A stretch of 64,000 nucleotides of DNA from Agrobacterium fabrum str. C58 (GTDB lineage: Bacteria > Pseudomonadota > Alphaproteobacteria > Rhizobiales > Rhizobiaceae): contig NC_003062.2 of assembly GCF_000092025.1 (NCBI RefSeq), positions 1,238,001 to 1,302,000 of the forward strand. Reading direction: 5' to 3'. A program made the position numbers and the translations under genes. Each line of letters opens with the position of its first letter. Positions within the stretch are counted from its first letter, which is position 1. The notes under the pieces are model-generated. The model was not told the DNA's origin. It searched no databases and saw nothing but the letters and a program-made list of their open reading frames with translations. Below are positions 40,511-45,207 of this stretch, in pieces.

Positions 40511-41194
40511 ATGGCAAAAAAAACAGTGCTGCGGCTTACCGGTGTCGAGAGAACCTATGGTCAGGGCGAGACATCGCTTTCAATTTTGCGCAAGGCCGAT
40601 TTTGAATTGAAGAGCGGTGAGATGGTGGCGCTGGTCGCCCCATCGGGCACCGGCAAATCGACGCTGCTGCATCTGGCGGGGCTTCTGGAGCATCCTGATG
40701 CGGGTGAGGTGCTCATCAACGGTGCGCCCTGCAACGGCCTGCCGGATGAAGCGCGCACCGCGATCCGCCGTAGCGATATCGGTTTCGTTTATCAGTTCCA
40801 TCACCTCCTGCCGGAATTCACCGCGGTGGAAAATGTGATGATGCCGCAGCTCATCGCCGGCCTCACGCAGGCGGAGGCACGCAAGCGGGCAAGCGCGCTG
40901 CTCGATTATATGCGGGTGGGCCATCGTGGTGAGCACCGTCCGGCCGAACTTTCGGGCGGTGAGCAGCAGCGTGTCGCCATTGCCCGCGCCGTTGCCAATG
41001 CGCCGCTGCTGCTGCTGGCCGACGAGCCGACTGGCAATCTCGATCCGGAAACCGCGCATTATGTTTTCGATGCGCTGGAGGCGCTGGTGCGTCAATCCGG
41101 CCTCGCGGCGCTGATCGCGACCCACAATCACGATCTTGCCAACCGCATGGATCGCCGCGTGACGCTCGCCGACGGCAAGATCGTCGATTTTTAA
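40511..41194 (+). CDS. lolD: Lipoprotein-releasing ABC transporter ATPase
   Basis: A 227-residue ABC ATPase paired with the permease 15 bases upstream. Walker [14 protein letters not shown]-loop [17 protein letters not shown] (with the LolD/MacB family motif FQxxxLLPEFTA), signature [14 protein letters not shown], Walker [13 protein letters not shown] and switch histidine in ATHNHDLA. All are intact. A strong terminator at 41337 ends the operon. Confidence 0.95.
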
Positions 41195-41336
41195 AGCGCT
41201 TTGCCGAGCGAGGCCTATCCCCGCGCATCGGGTGTCTTCCTTTTATGAGACGGACCCGGAACTGCATGTCGCGAGAAACCGCCCCCTTGGGTGCGCCTTG
41301 AGCACACCCGCTCTCCATATTTTGAATCTTTCTCGG

Positions 41337-41367
41337 ACCCGGAGGTGTTTTCACCTCCGGGTTTTTT
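41337..41367 (+). terminator. Intrinsic terminator of lolCD
   Basis: ACCCGGAGGTG (41337-41347) and CACCTCCGGGT (41352-41362) form a perfect 11-bp stem with a TTTT loop and six further T. It cleanly separates lolD from the SOS-box region. Confidence 0.93.
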
Positions 41368-41455: not shown

Positions 41456-41490
41456 TTGACAATCGAACAAAATGAGAACAAAGTTGGAAC
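41456..41490 (+). promoter_or_regulatory. Promoter overlapped by tandem LexA (SOS) boxes
   Basis: GAAC occurs at 41465-41468, 41476-41479 and 41487-41490, each pair separated by exactly seven bases, giving two overlapping GAAC-N7-GAAC sites (the alphaproteobacterial LexA operator, GTTC-N7-GTTC on the other strand). The first, GAACAAAATGAGAAC, fits the extended form GTTCTNNNTTTGTTC on its complement. A TTGACA -35 element lies at 41456-41461, so LexA bound here would block the promoter of the 28-codon gene. Confidence 0.75.
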
Positions 41491-41511
41491 ATAACGAGTA
41501 AGGAGAGACCA

Positions 41512-41598
41512 ATGACTGATTTCATCCGTGACGTTGCCGCTTTCGCCTCCATCGCTGTCTTTGTTGCCAGCTTCTCGGTGATCCTCACCGCCCTGTGA
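41512..41598 (+). CDS. SOS-controlled small membrane peptide (28 aa)
   Basis: ATG at 41512 follows AAGGAGAGACCA, a strong ribosome binding site. The 28-residue product starts MTDFIRDVAAF and ends FASFSVILTAL-like (VASFSVILTAL): a short charged N-terminus with two Asp and one Arg, then one ~20-residue hydrophobic helix. It has no signal cleavage site and should sit in the inner membrane. The promoter carries tandem LexA boxes and dnaE follows 105 bases downstream without an intervening terminator. Layout and size resemble SidA, the 29-residue SOS-induced division inhibitor of Caulobacter; that comparison is by context, not sequence. Confidence 0.7.
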   Translation: MTDFIRDVAAFASIAVFVASFSVILTAL

Positions 41599-41703
41599 AG
41601 AAGACACCGGCGCAGAAGACTGTATGGACGCCGCAAACTGGTGGACATTGAGCGCCGGAAATCGGAAAATCGCCCCCTCGATTCAGAATGACAGGAAGAC
41701 GAT

Positions 41704-44700
41704 ATGGGCGATACGGTTGTGCGTGGAGAGACCTCTGGTGAAACGCTGAAGACCCCCGGTTTCGTCCATCTTCGGGTTCATTCCGCTTATTCCCTGCTTG
41801 AGGGGGCGTTGCCCCTCAAGAAGATCATGTCCAAGGCCGTTGGGGACGGCCAGCCGGCCATTGCCATTACCGATACCAACAACCTCTTCGTTGCGCTGGA
41901 ATTTTCCGAAAAGGCGCGGGACGAAGGTCTGCAGCCGATTATCGGCTGCCAATTGTCCATCGACATGCAGGATGCGGCGGAGGATCGCCGCAACCACAAC
42001 AGCCATCTGCAGAAACTTCCCGCCATCGTTCTCCTTGCCGCCAATGCGGAAGGATATGAGCGGCTGGTGGATCTCGTCAGCCGTGCCTATCTGGACGGTG
42101 AGGGGGGCAGCCATTCCGTGCACATTACCCGTGCATGGCTTGAGGAAGCCTCCAATGCCGGTCTCATTGCGCTGACAGGCGCTTCCGGCGGCCCCGTCGA
42201 TATGGCGCTGAAGGAAGGCCACGCCGCGCAGGCGAAAGAGCGGCTGCTGACGCTGAAGTCACTTTTCGGTGACAGGCTTTATATCGAATTGCAGCGCCAG
42301 TCCGGTTACGACCGCTCCCATGAGCGGCGCTTGATTGGTCTCGCTTATGAACACGATATCCCCCTCGTTGCCACCAACGAGGCGTTTTTCCCGTCCAAGG
42401 CGGACTATGAGGCACATGATGCACTGATGGCGGTGGCACATAACGCCATCGTTTCCGATGACAGCCGGTTCCGCCTGACACCCGATCATTACCTCAAGAG
42501 CCGTGACGAGATGACGGCGCTGTTTGCCGATCTTCCCGAGGCACTGGAGAACACCGTCGAGATCGCGCTCCGTTGCTCGTATGTGCTGAAAAAACGCGGG
42601 CCGATCCTGCCGCGTTTCACCGGCGCCAGCGACGATCCGGAAGCGGCGGAACGGGCCGAAACCGAGGAACTGCGCCGACAGGCTGTCGAGGGGCTGGATC
42701 AGCGGCTTTCCGCGCTTGGCATGGCGCCCGGTTATACGGAACAGGATTATCGCGAGAGACTGGATTTCGAACTCGGCGTGATCTCGCGCATGAAGTTTCC
42801 CGGTTACTTCCTGATCGTTGCCGACTTCATCAAGTGGGCCAAGCAGCAGGATATTCCGGTCGGCCCGGGCCGTGGTTCGGGTGCCGGCTCTCTCGTCGCC
42901 TATGCGCTGACCATTACCGATGTCGATCCGCTGCGCTTCTCGCTGCTGTTCGAACGCTTTCTCAATCCCGAACGCGTTTCGATGCCCGACTTCGATATCG
43001 ACTTTTGCCAGGATCGCCGCGAAGAGGTGATCCGCTACGTGCAGCGCAAATATGGGCGCGAGCAGGTGGCGCAGATCATCACCTTCGGTTCGTTGCAGGC
43101 GCGCGCGGCCCTGCGCGACGTCGGCCGTGTGCTGGAAATGCCCTATGGCCAGGTGGACAAGATCTGCAAGCTGGTGCCCAACAACCCGGCCAACCCGACG
43201 CCGCTGTCCAAGGCGATCGAGGAGGAGCCGCGCCTGCAGGAGGAGGCGGACAAGGAGCCGGTCGTCGCCCGCCTGCTGGATATCGCCCAGAAGATCGAAG
43301 GACTTTACCGCCACGCCTCCACCCATGCCGCCGGTATCGTCATCGGCGACCGCCCGCTCTCCAAGCTGGTGCCGATGTATCGCGATCCGCGATCCGATAT
43401 GCCGGTTACCCAGTTCAACATGAAATGGGTGGAAAGCGCTGGCCTCGTCAAATTCGACTTTCTCGGCCTGAAGACGCTGACGGTGCTGAAAGTGGCCGTC
43501 GATTTTGTTGCCAAGCGCGGCATCAAGGTCGATCTCGCGGCCATTCCGCTCGAGGACGCCAAGACCTACGAGATGTTGTCGCGTGGTGAAACCATCGGCG
43601 TCTTCCAGGTGGAAAGTGCGGGCATGCGCAAGGCGCTGATCGGCATGCGTCCGGACTGTATCGAGGACATCATCGCGCTGGTGGCGCTTTACCGCCCCGG
43701 CCCGATGGAAAACATCCCGGTCTATAATGCCCGCAAACATGGCGAGGAGGAGCTGGAATCGATCCATCCGACCATCGACCATCTCCTCAAGGAAACACAG
43801 GGCGTTATCGTCTATCAGGAACAGGTGATGCAGATCGCCCAGGTCCTGTCAGGATATTCGCTCGGCGAAGCCGATCTTCTGCGCCGCGCCATGGGCAAGA
43901 AGATCAAGGAGGAGATGGACCAGCAGCGCGAGCGTTTCGTCGATGGCGCCATTAAAAACGGTGTGTCGAAACCGCAGGCCAACACCATCTTCGACCTTCT
44001 GGCGAAATTCGCCAATTACGGCTTCAACAAGAGCCATGCTGCAGCCTACGCCATCGTGTCCTACCAGACCGCCTATATGAAGGCGCATTATCCGGTGGAG
44101 TTCCTCGCGGCCTCCATGACACTCGATATGGCCAACACGGAAAAGCTGAACGATTTCCGTCAGGATGCCGGTCGTCTCGGCATCGAGGTCGTCGCACCCT
44201 CGGTACAGACCTCCTTCCGCCAGTTTGAGACGGGCGAAAACCGCATCTATTATTCGCTGGCCGCCATCAAGGGCGTGGGTGAGGGGGCGGTGGAACACAT
44301 CGTCCAGGTGCGTGGCGAAAAGCCATTTACGAGCCTTGAGGATTTCTGCCTGCGCATCGATCCCAAGCAGATCAACCGGCGTGTGCTGGAAAGCCTGATC
44401 AATGCCGGCGCTTTCGATTGTTTCGGCCGTGACCGCGCCGAGCTGATCGGTGGACTGGACCGCATCATCGGTTATGCCCAGATGGCCCAGAACAACCGCA
44501 CCATCGGTCAGTCGGACATGTTCGGCTCCGGCGGCGGGACAGGCCCGGAAAAGCTCATTTTGCCGGCGTTCCAATCCTGGCTGCCATCGGAAAAGCTGAT
44601 ACGCGAATATCAGGTGCTCGGTTTTTACCTTACGGCCCATCCGCTGGATACTTACCGGCCACTGCTGGAGAAATTACGGGTGCAGAATTTCGCCGATTTT

Positions 44701-45207
44701 TCCGCAGCGGTTAAGCAGGGCGCGTCCACCGTCGGGCGTCTGGCCGGTACCGTCACGGGCAAGCAGGAGCGTAAGACCCGTACCGGCAACAAGATGGGCA
44801 TCGTTACTTTTTCCGATGCATCGGGCCAGTATGAGGCGGTGCTGTTTTCCGAAGGGCTTGCCCAGTTCCGTGATCTGCTCGAGGTCGGCAAATCGCTGGT
44901 CATCAACGTCCAGGCGGAAGAACGCCCGGAAGGCATCGGTCTGCGTATCCAGACGGCTCAGTCGCTGGAAGAAAAATCCGTGCAGATGCAGAAGGCGCTT
45001 CGGGTTTATGTACGCGATTCCGGCCCGCTGAAGACGGTGGCCCGTCATCTCAACACAAAGGGCGACGGATCGGTTTATTTCATCGTCATCAAGGATGAAG
45101 GCAGCCGCGAGATCGAGGTGGAACTGACGGAGAAATACCGCATTTCACCTGAAATCGCCGCCGCATTGCGGTCCGCACCCGGCGTCGTTGATGTGGAACT
45201 GGTGTAA
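41704..45207 (+). CDS. dnaE: DNA polymerase III subunit alpha
   Basis: The 1167-residue replicative polymerase catalytic subunit. N-terminal PHP domain begins FVHLRVHSAYSLLEGALPL (residues ~20-38); the polymerase palm has VGPGRGSGAGSLVAYAL and PDFDIDFCQDRR with catalytic D429 and D431; TLKVAVDF.., EGLYRHASTHAAGIVIG and the C-terminal OB fold (ASTVGRLAGTVTGKQERKT) follow. The length and intact PHP region identify DnaE1 rather than the damage-inducible DnaE2 (ImuC). It is downstream of an SOS-box gene, so partial SOS control is possible. Confidence 0.95.
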   Translation: MGDTVVRGETSGETLKTPGFVHLRVHSAYSLLEGALPLKKIMSKAVGDGQPAIAITDTNNLFVALEFSEKARDEGLQPIIGCQLSIDMQDAAEDRRNHNSHLQKLPAIVLLAANAEGYERLVDLVSRAYLDGEGGSHSVHITRAWLEEASNAGLIALTGASGGPVDMALKEGHAAQAKERLLTLKSLFGDRLYIELQRQSGYDRSHERRLIGLAYEHDIPLVATNEAFFPSKADYEAHDALMAVAHNAIVSDDSRFRLTPDHYLKSRDEMTALFADLPEALENTVEIALRCSYVLKKRGPILPRFTGASDDPEAAERAETEELRRQAVEGLDQRLSALGMAPGYTEQDYRERLDFELGVISRMKFPGYFLIVADFIKWAKQQDIPVGPGRGSGAGSLVAYALTITDVDPLRFSLLFERFLNPERVSMPDFDIDFCQDRREEVIRYVQRKYGREQVAQIITFGSLQARAALRDVGRVLEMPYGQVDKICKLVPNNPANPTPLSKAIEEEPRLQEEADKEPVVARLLDIAQKIEGLYRHASTHAAGIVIGDRPLSKLVPMYRDPRSDMPVTQFNMKWVESAGLVKFDFLGLKTLTVLKVAVDFVAKRGIKVDLAAIPLEDAKTYEMLSRGETIGVFQVESAGMRKALIGMRPDCIEDIIALVALYRPGPMENIPVYNARKHGEEELESIHPTIDHLLKETQGVIVYQEQVMQIAQVLSGYSLGEADLLRRAMGKKIKEEMDQQRERFVDGAIKNGVSKPQANTIFDLLAKFANYGFNKSHAAAYAIVSYQTAYMKAHYPVEFLAASMTLDMANTEKLNDFRQDAGRLGIEVVAPSVQTSFRQFETGENRIYYSLAAIKGVGEGAVEHIVQVRGEKPFTSLEDFCLRIDPKQINRRVLESLINAGAFDCFGRDRAELIGGLDRIIGYAQMAQNNRTIGQSDMFGSGGGTGPEKLILPAFQSWLPSEKLIREYQVLGFYLTAHPLDTYRPLLEKLRVQNFADFSAAVKQGASTVGRLAGTVTGKQERKTRTGNKMGIVTFSDASGQYEAVLFSEGLAQFRDLLEVGKSLVINVQAEERPEGIGLRIQTAQSLEEKSVQMQKALRVYVRDSGPLKTVARHLNTKGDGSVYFIVIKDEGSREIEVELTEKYRISPEIAAALRSAPGVVDVELV

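What the first reader, a model, noticed from the sequence alone, without database searches (positions are those of the whole stretch)
41456..41598. Tandem SOS boxes driving a 28-residue membrane peptide just upstream of dnaE
Seen in sequence: three GAAC half-sites at exact 11-bp period over a TTGACA promoter, a strong ribosome binding site, and a 28-codon frame encoding a charged N-terminus plus one membrane helix. Known: alphaproteobacterial LexA binds GTTC-N7-GTTC, and Caulobacter makes SidA, a 29-residue SOS-induced inner-membrane division inhibitor. Inference: this is a rhizobial damage-induced checkpoint peptide, possibly linked to DNA polymerase III levels because dnaE follows without a terminator.
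Basis: partly seen in the sequence, partly recalled or inferred. Interest (0 to 1): 0.85.

Follow-up and report, generated by a model that had tools for sequence, protein, structure and literature searches.

The report
SidA-like SOS division-brake peptide in rhizobia
A tiny gene in an Agrobacterium-type chromosome, sitting behind DNA-damage switches just before the replication polymerase gene, codes for a conserved one-helix membrane peptide that looks like a distant relative of the Caulobacter peptide SidA, which stops cells dividing while their DNA is broken.

Summary
In detail: GAAC half-sites at 41465, 41476 and 41487, TTGACA at 41456, AAGGAG, and a 28-codon frame at 41512-41598. The triple box occurs once in the 5.67 Mb genome. 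The frame is a real gene: of the 30 best-scoring loci in its family (window included), 29 have a 28-codon version and all 30 lie by dnaE; codons look selected, and 27 of 29 have a LexA-type box within 75 nt. The evidence goes further: Caulobacter SidA (recognised by NCBIfam NF033228) lies in the same place and aligns without gaps over columns 1-19 (hhalign 90.8%; 0 of 300 full column permutations as good). NF033228 recognises none of 28 Rhizobiaceae peptides, so I call this a diverged SidA-like variant. In 6 of 16 weaker-scoring loci, boxed peptides have no dnaE within the roughly 1 kb read, which argues against a mere dnaE leader. Prior art: Sinorhizobium meliloti sORF25, translated, in the dnaE1 5'-UTR (PMC10117765); strain Ak57 carries this peptide and a triple box there. 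Division arrest through FtsW is inferred.

The parts
40511..41194 (+). lolD (lipoprotein-releasing ABC ATPase), upstream neighbour
   Evidence: best NCBIfam hit LolD (253.2 bits), below that model's cut-off of 307.75
41335..41364 (+). intrinsic terminator that probably closes the lolD transcript
   Evidence: 13-pair stem, T-rich tail
41456..41461 (+). -35 element TTGACA
   Evidence: TTGAC within 75 nt in 25 of 29 loci
41465..41479 (+). LexA-type box A, GAACAAAATGAGAAC
   Evidence: a box within 75 nt in 27 of 29 loci
41476..41490 (+). LexA-type box B, GAACAAAGTTGGAAC, sharing a half-site with box A; the triple is unique in the genome
41479..41484 (+). probable -10 element (CAAAGT, 17-bp spacing), overlapped by the boxes
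   Evidence: comparison of 25 loci; inference
41500..41505 (+). ribosome binding site AAGGAG
   Evidence: GGAG-type site in 25 of 29 loci
41512..41598 (+). 28-codon gene, SidA-like single-helix membrane peptide MTDFIRDVAAFASIAVFVASFSVILTAL
41642..41670 (+). promoter-like site that could serve dnaE alone
   Evidence: 9 of 12 consensus matches; weak evidence
41704..45207 (+). dnaE (DNA polymerase III alpha, best TIGR00594 match of this genome), no terminator found between it and the peptide gene

Best explanation
This is a LexA-repressed gene for a 28-residue inner-membrane peptide, a diverged relative of Caulobacter SidA. Undamaged: LexA sits on two overlapping GAACN7GAAC sites covering the spacer and -10, so the promoter is mostly shut. 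DNA damage: RecA-stimulated LexA cleavage opens it, the peptide is made and inserts as one helix. By analogy with SidA it meets the late divisome complex FtsW/FtsI/FtsN and holds it inactive, delaying division until repair. The same transcript can run on into dnaE, so replicative polymerase may rise in the same pulse. Shown here: operator, promoter layout, conserved coding frame, common position and sequence relation with SidA, unchanged FtsW suppressor positions. Inferred: LexA binding, damage induction, membrane insertion, FtsW target, division arrest, dnaE read-through.
For: Coding: of 30 fetched loci (the window's own included) 29 have a 28-codon frame and all 30 have dnaE beside it; pooled pS 0.66 against pN 0.26; site entropy 0.95/0.32/1.38 for codon positions 1/2/3. 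Operator: box within 75 nt in 27 of 29; shuffles 0.36%, flanking windows 3 of 290; same motif at lexA, uvrA-ssb and comM/YifB in this genome. SidA link: two genomes whose DnaN is 100% identical to PDB 5wce carry a 29-aa peptide before dnaE, and NF033228 SidA recognises it (72.3 bits, cut-off 35). Profile alignment is ungapped over columns 1-19 at 90.8%, better than 300 of 300 permutations of all columns and 299 of 300 of columns 8-29; register 0 scores 25.1, the next best of shifts -6 to 6 scores 3.9. A LolD match lies in 20 of 35 Caulobacteraceae loci. A profile trained on both families finds 31 of 155 dnaE upstream regions at E<=0.01, against 0 of 155 reversed and 0 of 155 shuffled; 18 of 142 without 13 named loci close to the training set. 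FtsW positions A31, F145 and A246, where C. crescentus mutations suppress SidA and/or DidA (PMC4211646 passages), hold the same residues here. Boxed peptides persist without dnaE nearby in 6 of 16. An sORF at the S. meliloti equivalent position is translated (PMC10117765; peptide in strain Ak57).
Against: NF033228 recognises none of 28 Rhizobiaceae peptides even at E<=10; the alignment covers only columns 1-19. The tryptophan at position 19, nearly invariant in Caulobacteraceae, is alanine here. Within the helix alone the match is modest (p 0.013 for columns 8-28; 1 of 300). 56 of 121 family genomes have no match at E<=10, and none of the sampled Mesorhizobium, Bartonella, Rhodobacteraceae, Sphingomonas or Acetobacteraceae regions before dnaE reached E<=0.01. 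Outside the two training families many boxed hydrophobic frames do not fit the profile: 8 of 17 in the order set and 1 of 5 in the class set pass E<=0.01. S. meliloti sORF25 was seen translated in cultures not described as damaged, so repression would be leaky. The FtsW positions may be kept for FtsW's own sake. No expression, localisation or division data exist here.
Confidence: 0.7

Rival explanations
1. The frame is an upstream ORF or leader peptide whose translation tunes dnaE expression; the peptide itself does nothing.
For: Its equivalent position in S. meliloti was listed among possible uORFs (PMC10117765); it precedes dnaE in 30 of 30 top-scoring loci; no terminator was found between them.
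Against: Residue-level conservation with the second codon position the most constant; the estimated gap to dnaE varies from 82 to 650 nt in 29 loci; no unusual RNA fold (z 0.27); boxed peptides stay without dnaE within about 1 kb in 6 of 16 weaker-scoring loci (dnaE further off cannot be excluded); the related Caulobacter peptide is SidA, an acting protein.
Confidence: 0.1
2. A LexA-regulated membrane peptide with a different target, for example one that disturbs the membrane itself, of the DinQ or TisB type.
For: One-helix SOS peptides in other bacteria act on the membrane (TisB recalled; DinQ from an abstract start in the listing); the C-terminal half differs from SidA.
Against: Register-exact similarity to SidA including R6, D7, S13 and F17, and the same locus; unchanged FtsW suppressor positions.
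Confidence: 0.15
3. The resemblance to SidA is convergence: two unrelated SOS membrane peptides that arose at the same SOS-controlled place before dnaE. (This does not exclude a division-inhibiting function.)
For: 28-29 residues is little signal; helix-only permutation p is about 0.01; the equivalog model fails.
Against: Same register, nearly the same length, same lolD-peptide-dnaE order, intermediate-looking peptides in Roseibium and Devosia, and weak NF033228 hits in Roseibium (E 0.0062) and L097 (E 0.067). Devosia and five other intermediates gave no NF033228 hit.
Confidence: 0.12
4. Chance: neither a gene nor an operator.
For: Single GAACN7GAAC sites are common by chance.
Confidence: 0.01

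Closest known systems
SidA of Caulobacter crescentus (NCBIfam NF033228, div_inhib_SidA)
   Same: 28-29 residues, one hydrophobic helix, GAACN7GAAC box, gene just upstream of dnaE (with a LolD match nearby in 20 of 35 Caulobacteraceae loci), ungapped alignment with shared R6, D/E7, A10, S13, F17, V18
   Different: Not recognised by NF033228; no W19; C-terminal half unlike; here the half-sites form one overlapping run with period 11; function untested
sORF25 of Sinorhizobium meliloti 2011 (PMC10117765)
   Same: In the 5'-UTR of dnaE1, translated by Ribo-seq; S. meliloti Ak57 carries a 28-aa relative with a triple box just before dnaE
   Different: Discussed with possible uORFs; the text I read (section 24 and find passages; 'SidA' 0 occurrences) does not link it to SidA or an SOS box. 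I did not see the sORF25 sequence, so identity rests on position
DidA of C. crescentus
   Same: Small one-helix inhibitor acting on the FtsW/I/N complex (PMC4211646 passages)
   Different: 71 aa, SOS-independent, binds FtsN
YneA (Bacillus) and SosA (Staphylococcus)
   Same: SOS-induced membrane division inhibitors (abstract starts in listings, PMC13396833 and PMC6851548); YneA interacts with FtsW (title)
   Different: Longer, with extracellular parts (recalled); no sequence relation tested

Membership tests
SidA equivalog NF033228 | Score above the curated cut-off (35 bits) | tested here: not met
   no hit for the window peptide at E<=10; 0 of 28 Rhizobiaceae peptides
SidA-like family in the wider sense | About 28-36 aa, single hydrophobic stretch with short charged N-terminus | tested here: met
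   28 aa with D3, R6, D7 before an uncharged stretch (read by eye; hydropathy of the window peptide not computed)
SidA-like family in the wider sense | Alpha-type LexA box over the promoter | tested here: met
   operator type checked at lexA, uvrA-ssb, comM/YifB
SidA-like family in the wider sense | Gene directly upstream of dnaE | tested here: met
   window; 30 of 30 top-scoring loci, and 28 of 30 Caulobacteraceae dnaE loci carry the peptide; not met in 6 of 16 weaker-scoring loci
SidA-like family in the wider sense | Sequence homology to SidA | tested here: met
   moderate strength, columns 1-19
SidA-like family in the wider sense | Tryptophan at position 19 (nearly invariant in the 22 Caulobacteraceae peptides) | tested here: not met
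   against the window peptide (A19)
SOS regulon (LexA) | LexA binding and damage induction | not testable with these tools
   needs EMSA/ChIP and expression data
FtsW-directed division inhibitor | Binds FtsW/FtsN and blocks division | not testable with these tools
   only unchanged target positions seen: A31, F145, A246
uORF/leader peptide of dnaE | Stays coupled to dnaE | tested here: not met
   6 of 16 weaker-scoring loci without dnaE within about 1 kb

The most novel reading that the evidence does not exclude
SidA is not a Caulobacter speciality but the best-known member of an ancient alphaproteobacterial family. A lexA-controlled sidA-dnaE unit was present in the ancestor of Hyphomicrobiales and Caulobacterales, coupling division arrest and supply of the replicative polymerase in one damage-induced transcript. 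Temperate phages of rhizobia have since captured the peptide and carry it without the SOS box.
Probability: 0.45. Interest if true: 0.75.

Novelty: new variant of a known kind. Interest (0 to 1): 0.63.

Why it matters
None of the paper listings that I obtained pointed to an SOS division inhibitor of rhizobia or Agrobacterium (listings only, open PMC papers). If the reading is right, the damage checkpoint of these bacteria becomes directly testable with one 28-codon gene, a translated sORF discussed as a possible uORF gains a function, and SidA becomes a broad family whose sequence spread shows which residues of a 28-aa inhibitor matter. It would also be a case where a division brake and the replicative polymerase gene share a promoter across orders.

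Tried and rejected
Rejected: chance box (unique triple); non-coding; RNA element (4 Rfam matches, all far below gathering score; z 0.27); Pfam family (none for 28 peptides); PHROG family (5 peptides, only one weak hit, E 0.26, for SidA). Led nowhere: the A1 profile on 385 class genomes gave 104 with a match at E<=1, mostly fragments at noise level; its two best hits outside the own genome were checked and had neither dnaE nor a box (L061, L062). The guess that one of 15 class genomes was Caulobacter failed (at most 60% DnaN identity), so Caulobacteraceae were found through DnaN. The related-loci query was by mistake the C-terminal 400 aa of the matched DnaE region; the 3-kb flanks still covered the region upstream of dnaE in most loci, and loci with at least 400 bases there were used (75 of 80). 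In one search thirteen named loci are close to the training set (L215-L224, L255, L277, L280; some of their peptides were in it); without them 18 of 142 regions remain at E<=0.01. Box counts (strict motif within 90 nt of the longest start): profile hits at E<=0.1 with box 8 of 12 (order), 2 of 2 (class), 12 of 21 (named); regions without such a hit but with a box 9 of 28, 3 of 38, 5 of 54. The 30 loci are the best-scoring matches, not a random sample; 16 of the other 35 matched genomes were read.

Full report
What is there. The window is G000:C1:1238001-1302000 of a 5,674,258-base genome in 4 contigs; the sizes fit Agrobacterium fabrum C58 (recalled, not looked up). Genomes of the same family (f1) are called Rhizobiaceae here: two of them match Sinorhizobium plasmid records (G057 at 100%, G071 at 95%). 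Between lolD and dnaE lie a terminator (41335-41364), then TTGACA (41456), three GAAC half-sites at 41465, 41476 and 41487, AAGGAG (41500) and ATG 41512 - TGA 41598, coding MTDFIRDVAAFASIAVFVASFSVILTAL. dnaE starts at 41704. No terminator was found between the frame and dnaE; a weak promoter-like site at 41642-41670 might serve dnaE alone.

Is the operator real? GAACN7GAAC alone is frequent by chance in 64 kb. In the genome it is twice as common as its reversed control (188 against 91), and among the sites I looked at some stand before lexA (L339), between uvrA and ssb (L341) and before a comM/YifB gene (L009) (19 sites looked at; protein names from NCBIfam, UvrA as a fragment below cut-off). 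Most of the other 16 sites showed no gene that I recognised as SOS-related. The run of three half-sites is the only one in the genome. Among 29 loci with a 28-codon frame (the window's own included), 27 have the box within 75 nt of the start codon, 7 the exact triple, and 21 a triple with one outer half-site relaxed. Mono-nucleotide shuffles give 0.36%, flanking windows 3 of 290. TTGAC is kept in 25 of 29, and 17 bases on, the commonest bases are C-A-A-A-A-T in those 25. The second half-site runs into that hexamer, so bound LexA would cover spacer and -10 (inference).

Is the frame a gene? A search of 121 family genomes found a match in 65 at E<=10 and none in 56. Of the 30 best loci (window included), 30 have dnaE beside it and 29 have exactly 28 codons; the thirtieth, L052, is a 27-codon frame. 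Pooled over pairs, pS is 0.66 and pN 0.26 (synonymous sites near saturation); codon-position entropies are 0.95, 0.32 and 1.38. Twenty further regions were read from weaker matches: 16 first copies (16 of the 35 remaining matched genomes) and 4 second copies. Of the 16, 15 have a strict box; 10 have dnaE in the roughly 1 kb read on that side, 6 do not (L326, L330, L331, L332, L333, L334, whose matches had E 0.03-0.38). In L326, L330 and L332 a LolD-like frame still lies upstream (judged by eye against the window's LolD). So the boxed peptide gene seems to survive where dnaE is not beside it, which a pure dnaE leader would not.

The SidA link. PMC1839093 (passages) gives C. crescentus dnaE as CC1926 and PMC11034885 (one passage) gives sidA as CCNA_02004; that sidA is CC1927 next to dnaE is recalled. 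To test it I found Caulobacteraceae through DnaN (PDB 5wce taken as C. crescentus from memory). In the two genomes with 100% identical DnaN that gave a dnaE locus (L297, L298; a third, G729, gave none), and in three close ones (L295, L296, L299), a 29-residue peptide such as [29 protein letters not shown] lies just before dnaE with the box GAACATCTTGTGAAC. NCBIfam names it SidA (NF033228, 72.3 bits, cut-off 35), and all 22 Caulobacteraceae peptides of alignment A2 hit that model at E<=10 (single scores not shown for the others). 28 of 30 Caulobacteraceae dnaE loci carry such a frame, 15 of the 28 with a strict box nearby. Rhizobiaceae and Caulobacteraceae profiles align without a gap over columns 1-19 at 90.8%; 0 of 300 permutations of all columns after the first and 1 of 300 of columns 8-29 score as well. 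A simpler column test gives p 5.5e-5 for columns 2-28, 0.013 for 8-28 and 0.006 for 8-20, and register 0 scores 25.1 against 3.9 for the next of the shifts tried. A LolD match lies in 20 of 35 Caulobacteraceae loci. None of 28 Rhizobiaceae peptides hits NF033228. Of ten further peptides, one Caulobacteraceae control scored 33 bits, Roseibium (E 0.0062) and L097 (E 0.067) hit weakly, and the other seven did not hit it. W19, nearly invariant in Caulobacteraceae, is A19 here. Hence 'SidA-like, diverged', not 'member of the SidA equivalog'.

Breadth. A profile trained on 27 Rhizobiaceae and 22 Caulobacteraceae peptides was run on 155 regions upstream of dnaE (40 of the 149 order genomes with dnaE, 40 of the 191 class genomes, 75 of 80 named loci): 31 hits at E<=0.01, against 0 reversed and 0 shuffled; 18 of 142 when 13 named loci close to the training set are left out. 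With a simple filter in the order set, 17 of 19 regions with a box have a hydrophobic 20-60 aa frame with a ribosome site after it, and 4 of 21 without a box have such a frame (counted); of those 17 boxed frames, 8 also pass the profile at E<=0.01. In the class set the five regions with a GAACN7GAAC box all have such a frame, but only one (L133) passes E<=0.01. So beyond the two families the pattern box-plus-small-hydrophobic-frame is clearer than the sequence likeness. Named carriers or 63 include Caulobacter, Brevundimonas, Phenylobacterium, Roseibium, Pseudovibrio, Devosia, Aureimonas, Neorhizobium and Rhizobium tropici; the sampled Mesorhizobium, Bartonella, Rhodobacteraceae, Sphingomonas and Acetobacteraceae regions had no hit at E<=0.01 before dnaE.

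Prior evidence of expression. PMC10117765 (section 24 read; passages) reports S. meliloti sORF25, translated by Ribo-seq, in the 5'-UTR of dnaE1, and suggests that some such sORFs act as uORFs. I could not see its sequence. S. meliloti Ak57 has, between the ABC ATPase and dnaE, MADFVRDLAAFASMSLFIVSISVIALGL with the triple GAACGGAAATAGAACAAAAAGGGAAC; the PLSDB gene table, which is incomplete, lists no gene there. So sORF25 is probably the same gene, cotranscribed with dnaE1 and translated also without deliberate damage.

Mechanism. In Caulobacter, SidA is a 29-aa inner-membrane protein that interacts with FtsW and FtsN and is the primary SOS division inhibitor; FtsW mutations F145L and A246T suppress both SidA and DidA, and A31K is among further suppressors (PMC4211646 passages); lexA mutants filament because of sidA (PMC12700426 passages). 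Between the FtsW of a Caulobacter genome (L301) and of this genome (L304), 183 of 390 aligned positions are identical, and A31, F145 and A246 hold the same residue. This makes the same target plausible but proves nothing, as FtsW is conserved anyway. I therefore commit to LexA-controlled, SidA-like division arrest at 0.7, with LexA control itself nearer 0.9 and the FtsW-complex target nearer 0.6.

Literature limits. Searches covered open PMC papers only, and several listings were capped; no listed title or abstract start links SidA with rhizobia or Agrobacterium. The founding SidA paper (Modell 2011, recalled) and Erill 2004 were not held, so a remark on wider conservation there cannot be excluded.

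Noticed in passing
L318, L321, L323, L325; IMG/VR loci L348-L353: Second SidA-like peptides (MRDLL.D..SF..VSTFIATFAVWA type, 29-32 aa) without a strict SOS box. Of 5 neighbouring proteins (from L318, L321, L325) 4 match PHROG families, among them an exonuclease and repressors. A degenerate pattern found 6 viral contigs with the frame, two pairs alike, one of them with the contig length of L321's. A tblastn of the peptide against 50,697 phage records found nothing. Temperate phages of rhizobia may carry SidA-like peptides.
   Followed up: partly
L326, L330, L331, L332, L333, L334: Boxed peptide gene present without dnaE in the roughly 1 kb read; a LolD-like frame still upstream in three of them, so dnaE and the peptide seem to have been parted in several lineages.
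   Followed up: partly
CP090106.1 (S. meliloti Ak57): A 3.7-Mb record labelled plasmid pSymB carries dnaE and looks like the chromosome, so the label is probably wrong.
   Followed up: no
L295-L299, upstream of Caulobacter sidA: Besides the strict box GAACATCTTGTGAAC there are near-boxes in tandem (GAACAAAA..GGAAT, GAACAAAACAAGAAA), so tandem operators may be a shared feature of sidA-type promoters.
   Followed up: no
G000 (whole genome): Four DnaE-family matches at E<=1e-100 in this genome: the copy in the window, its best match, and three others, presumably DnaE2-type.
   Followed up: no
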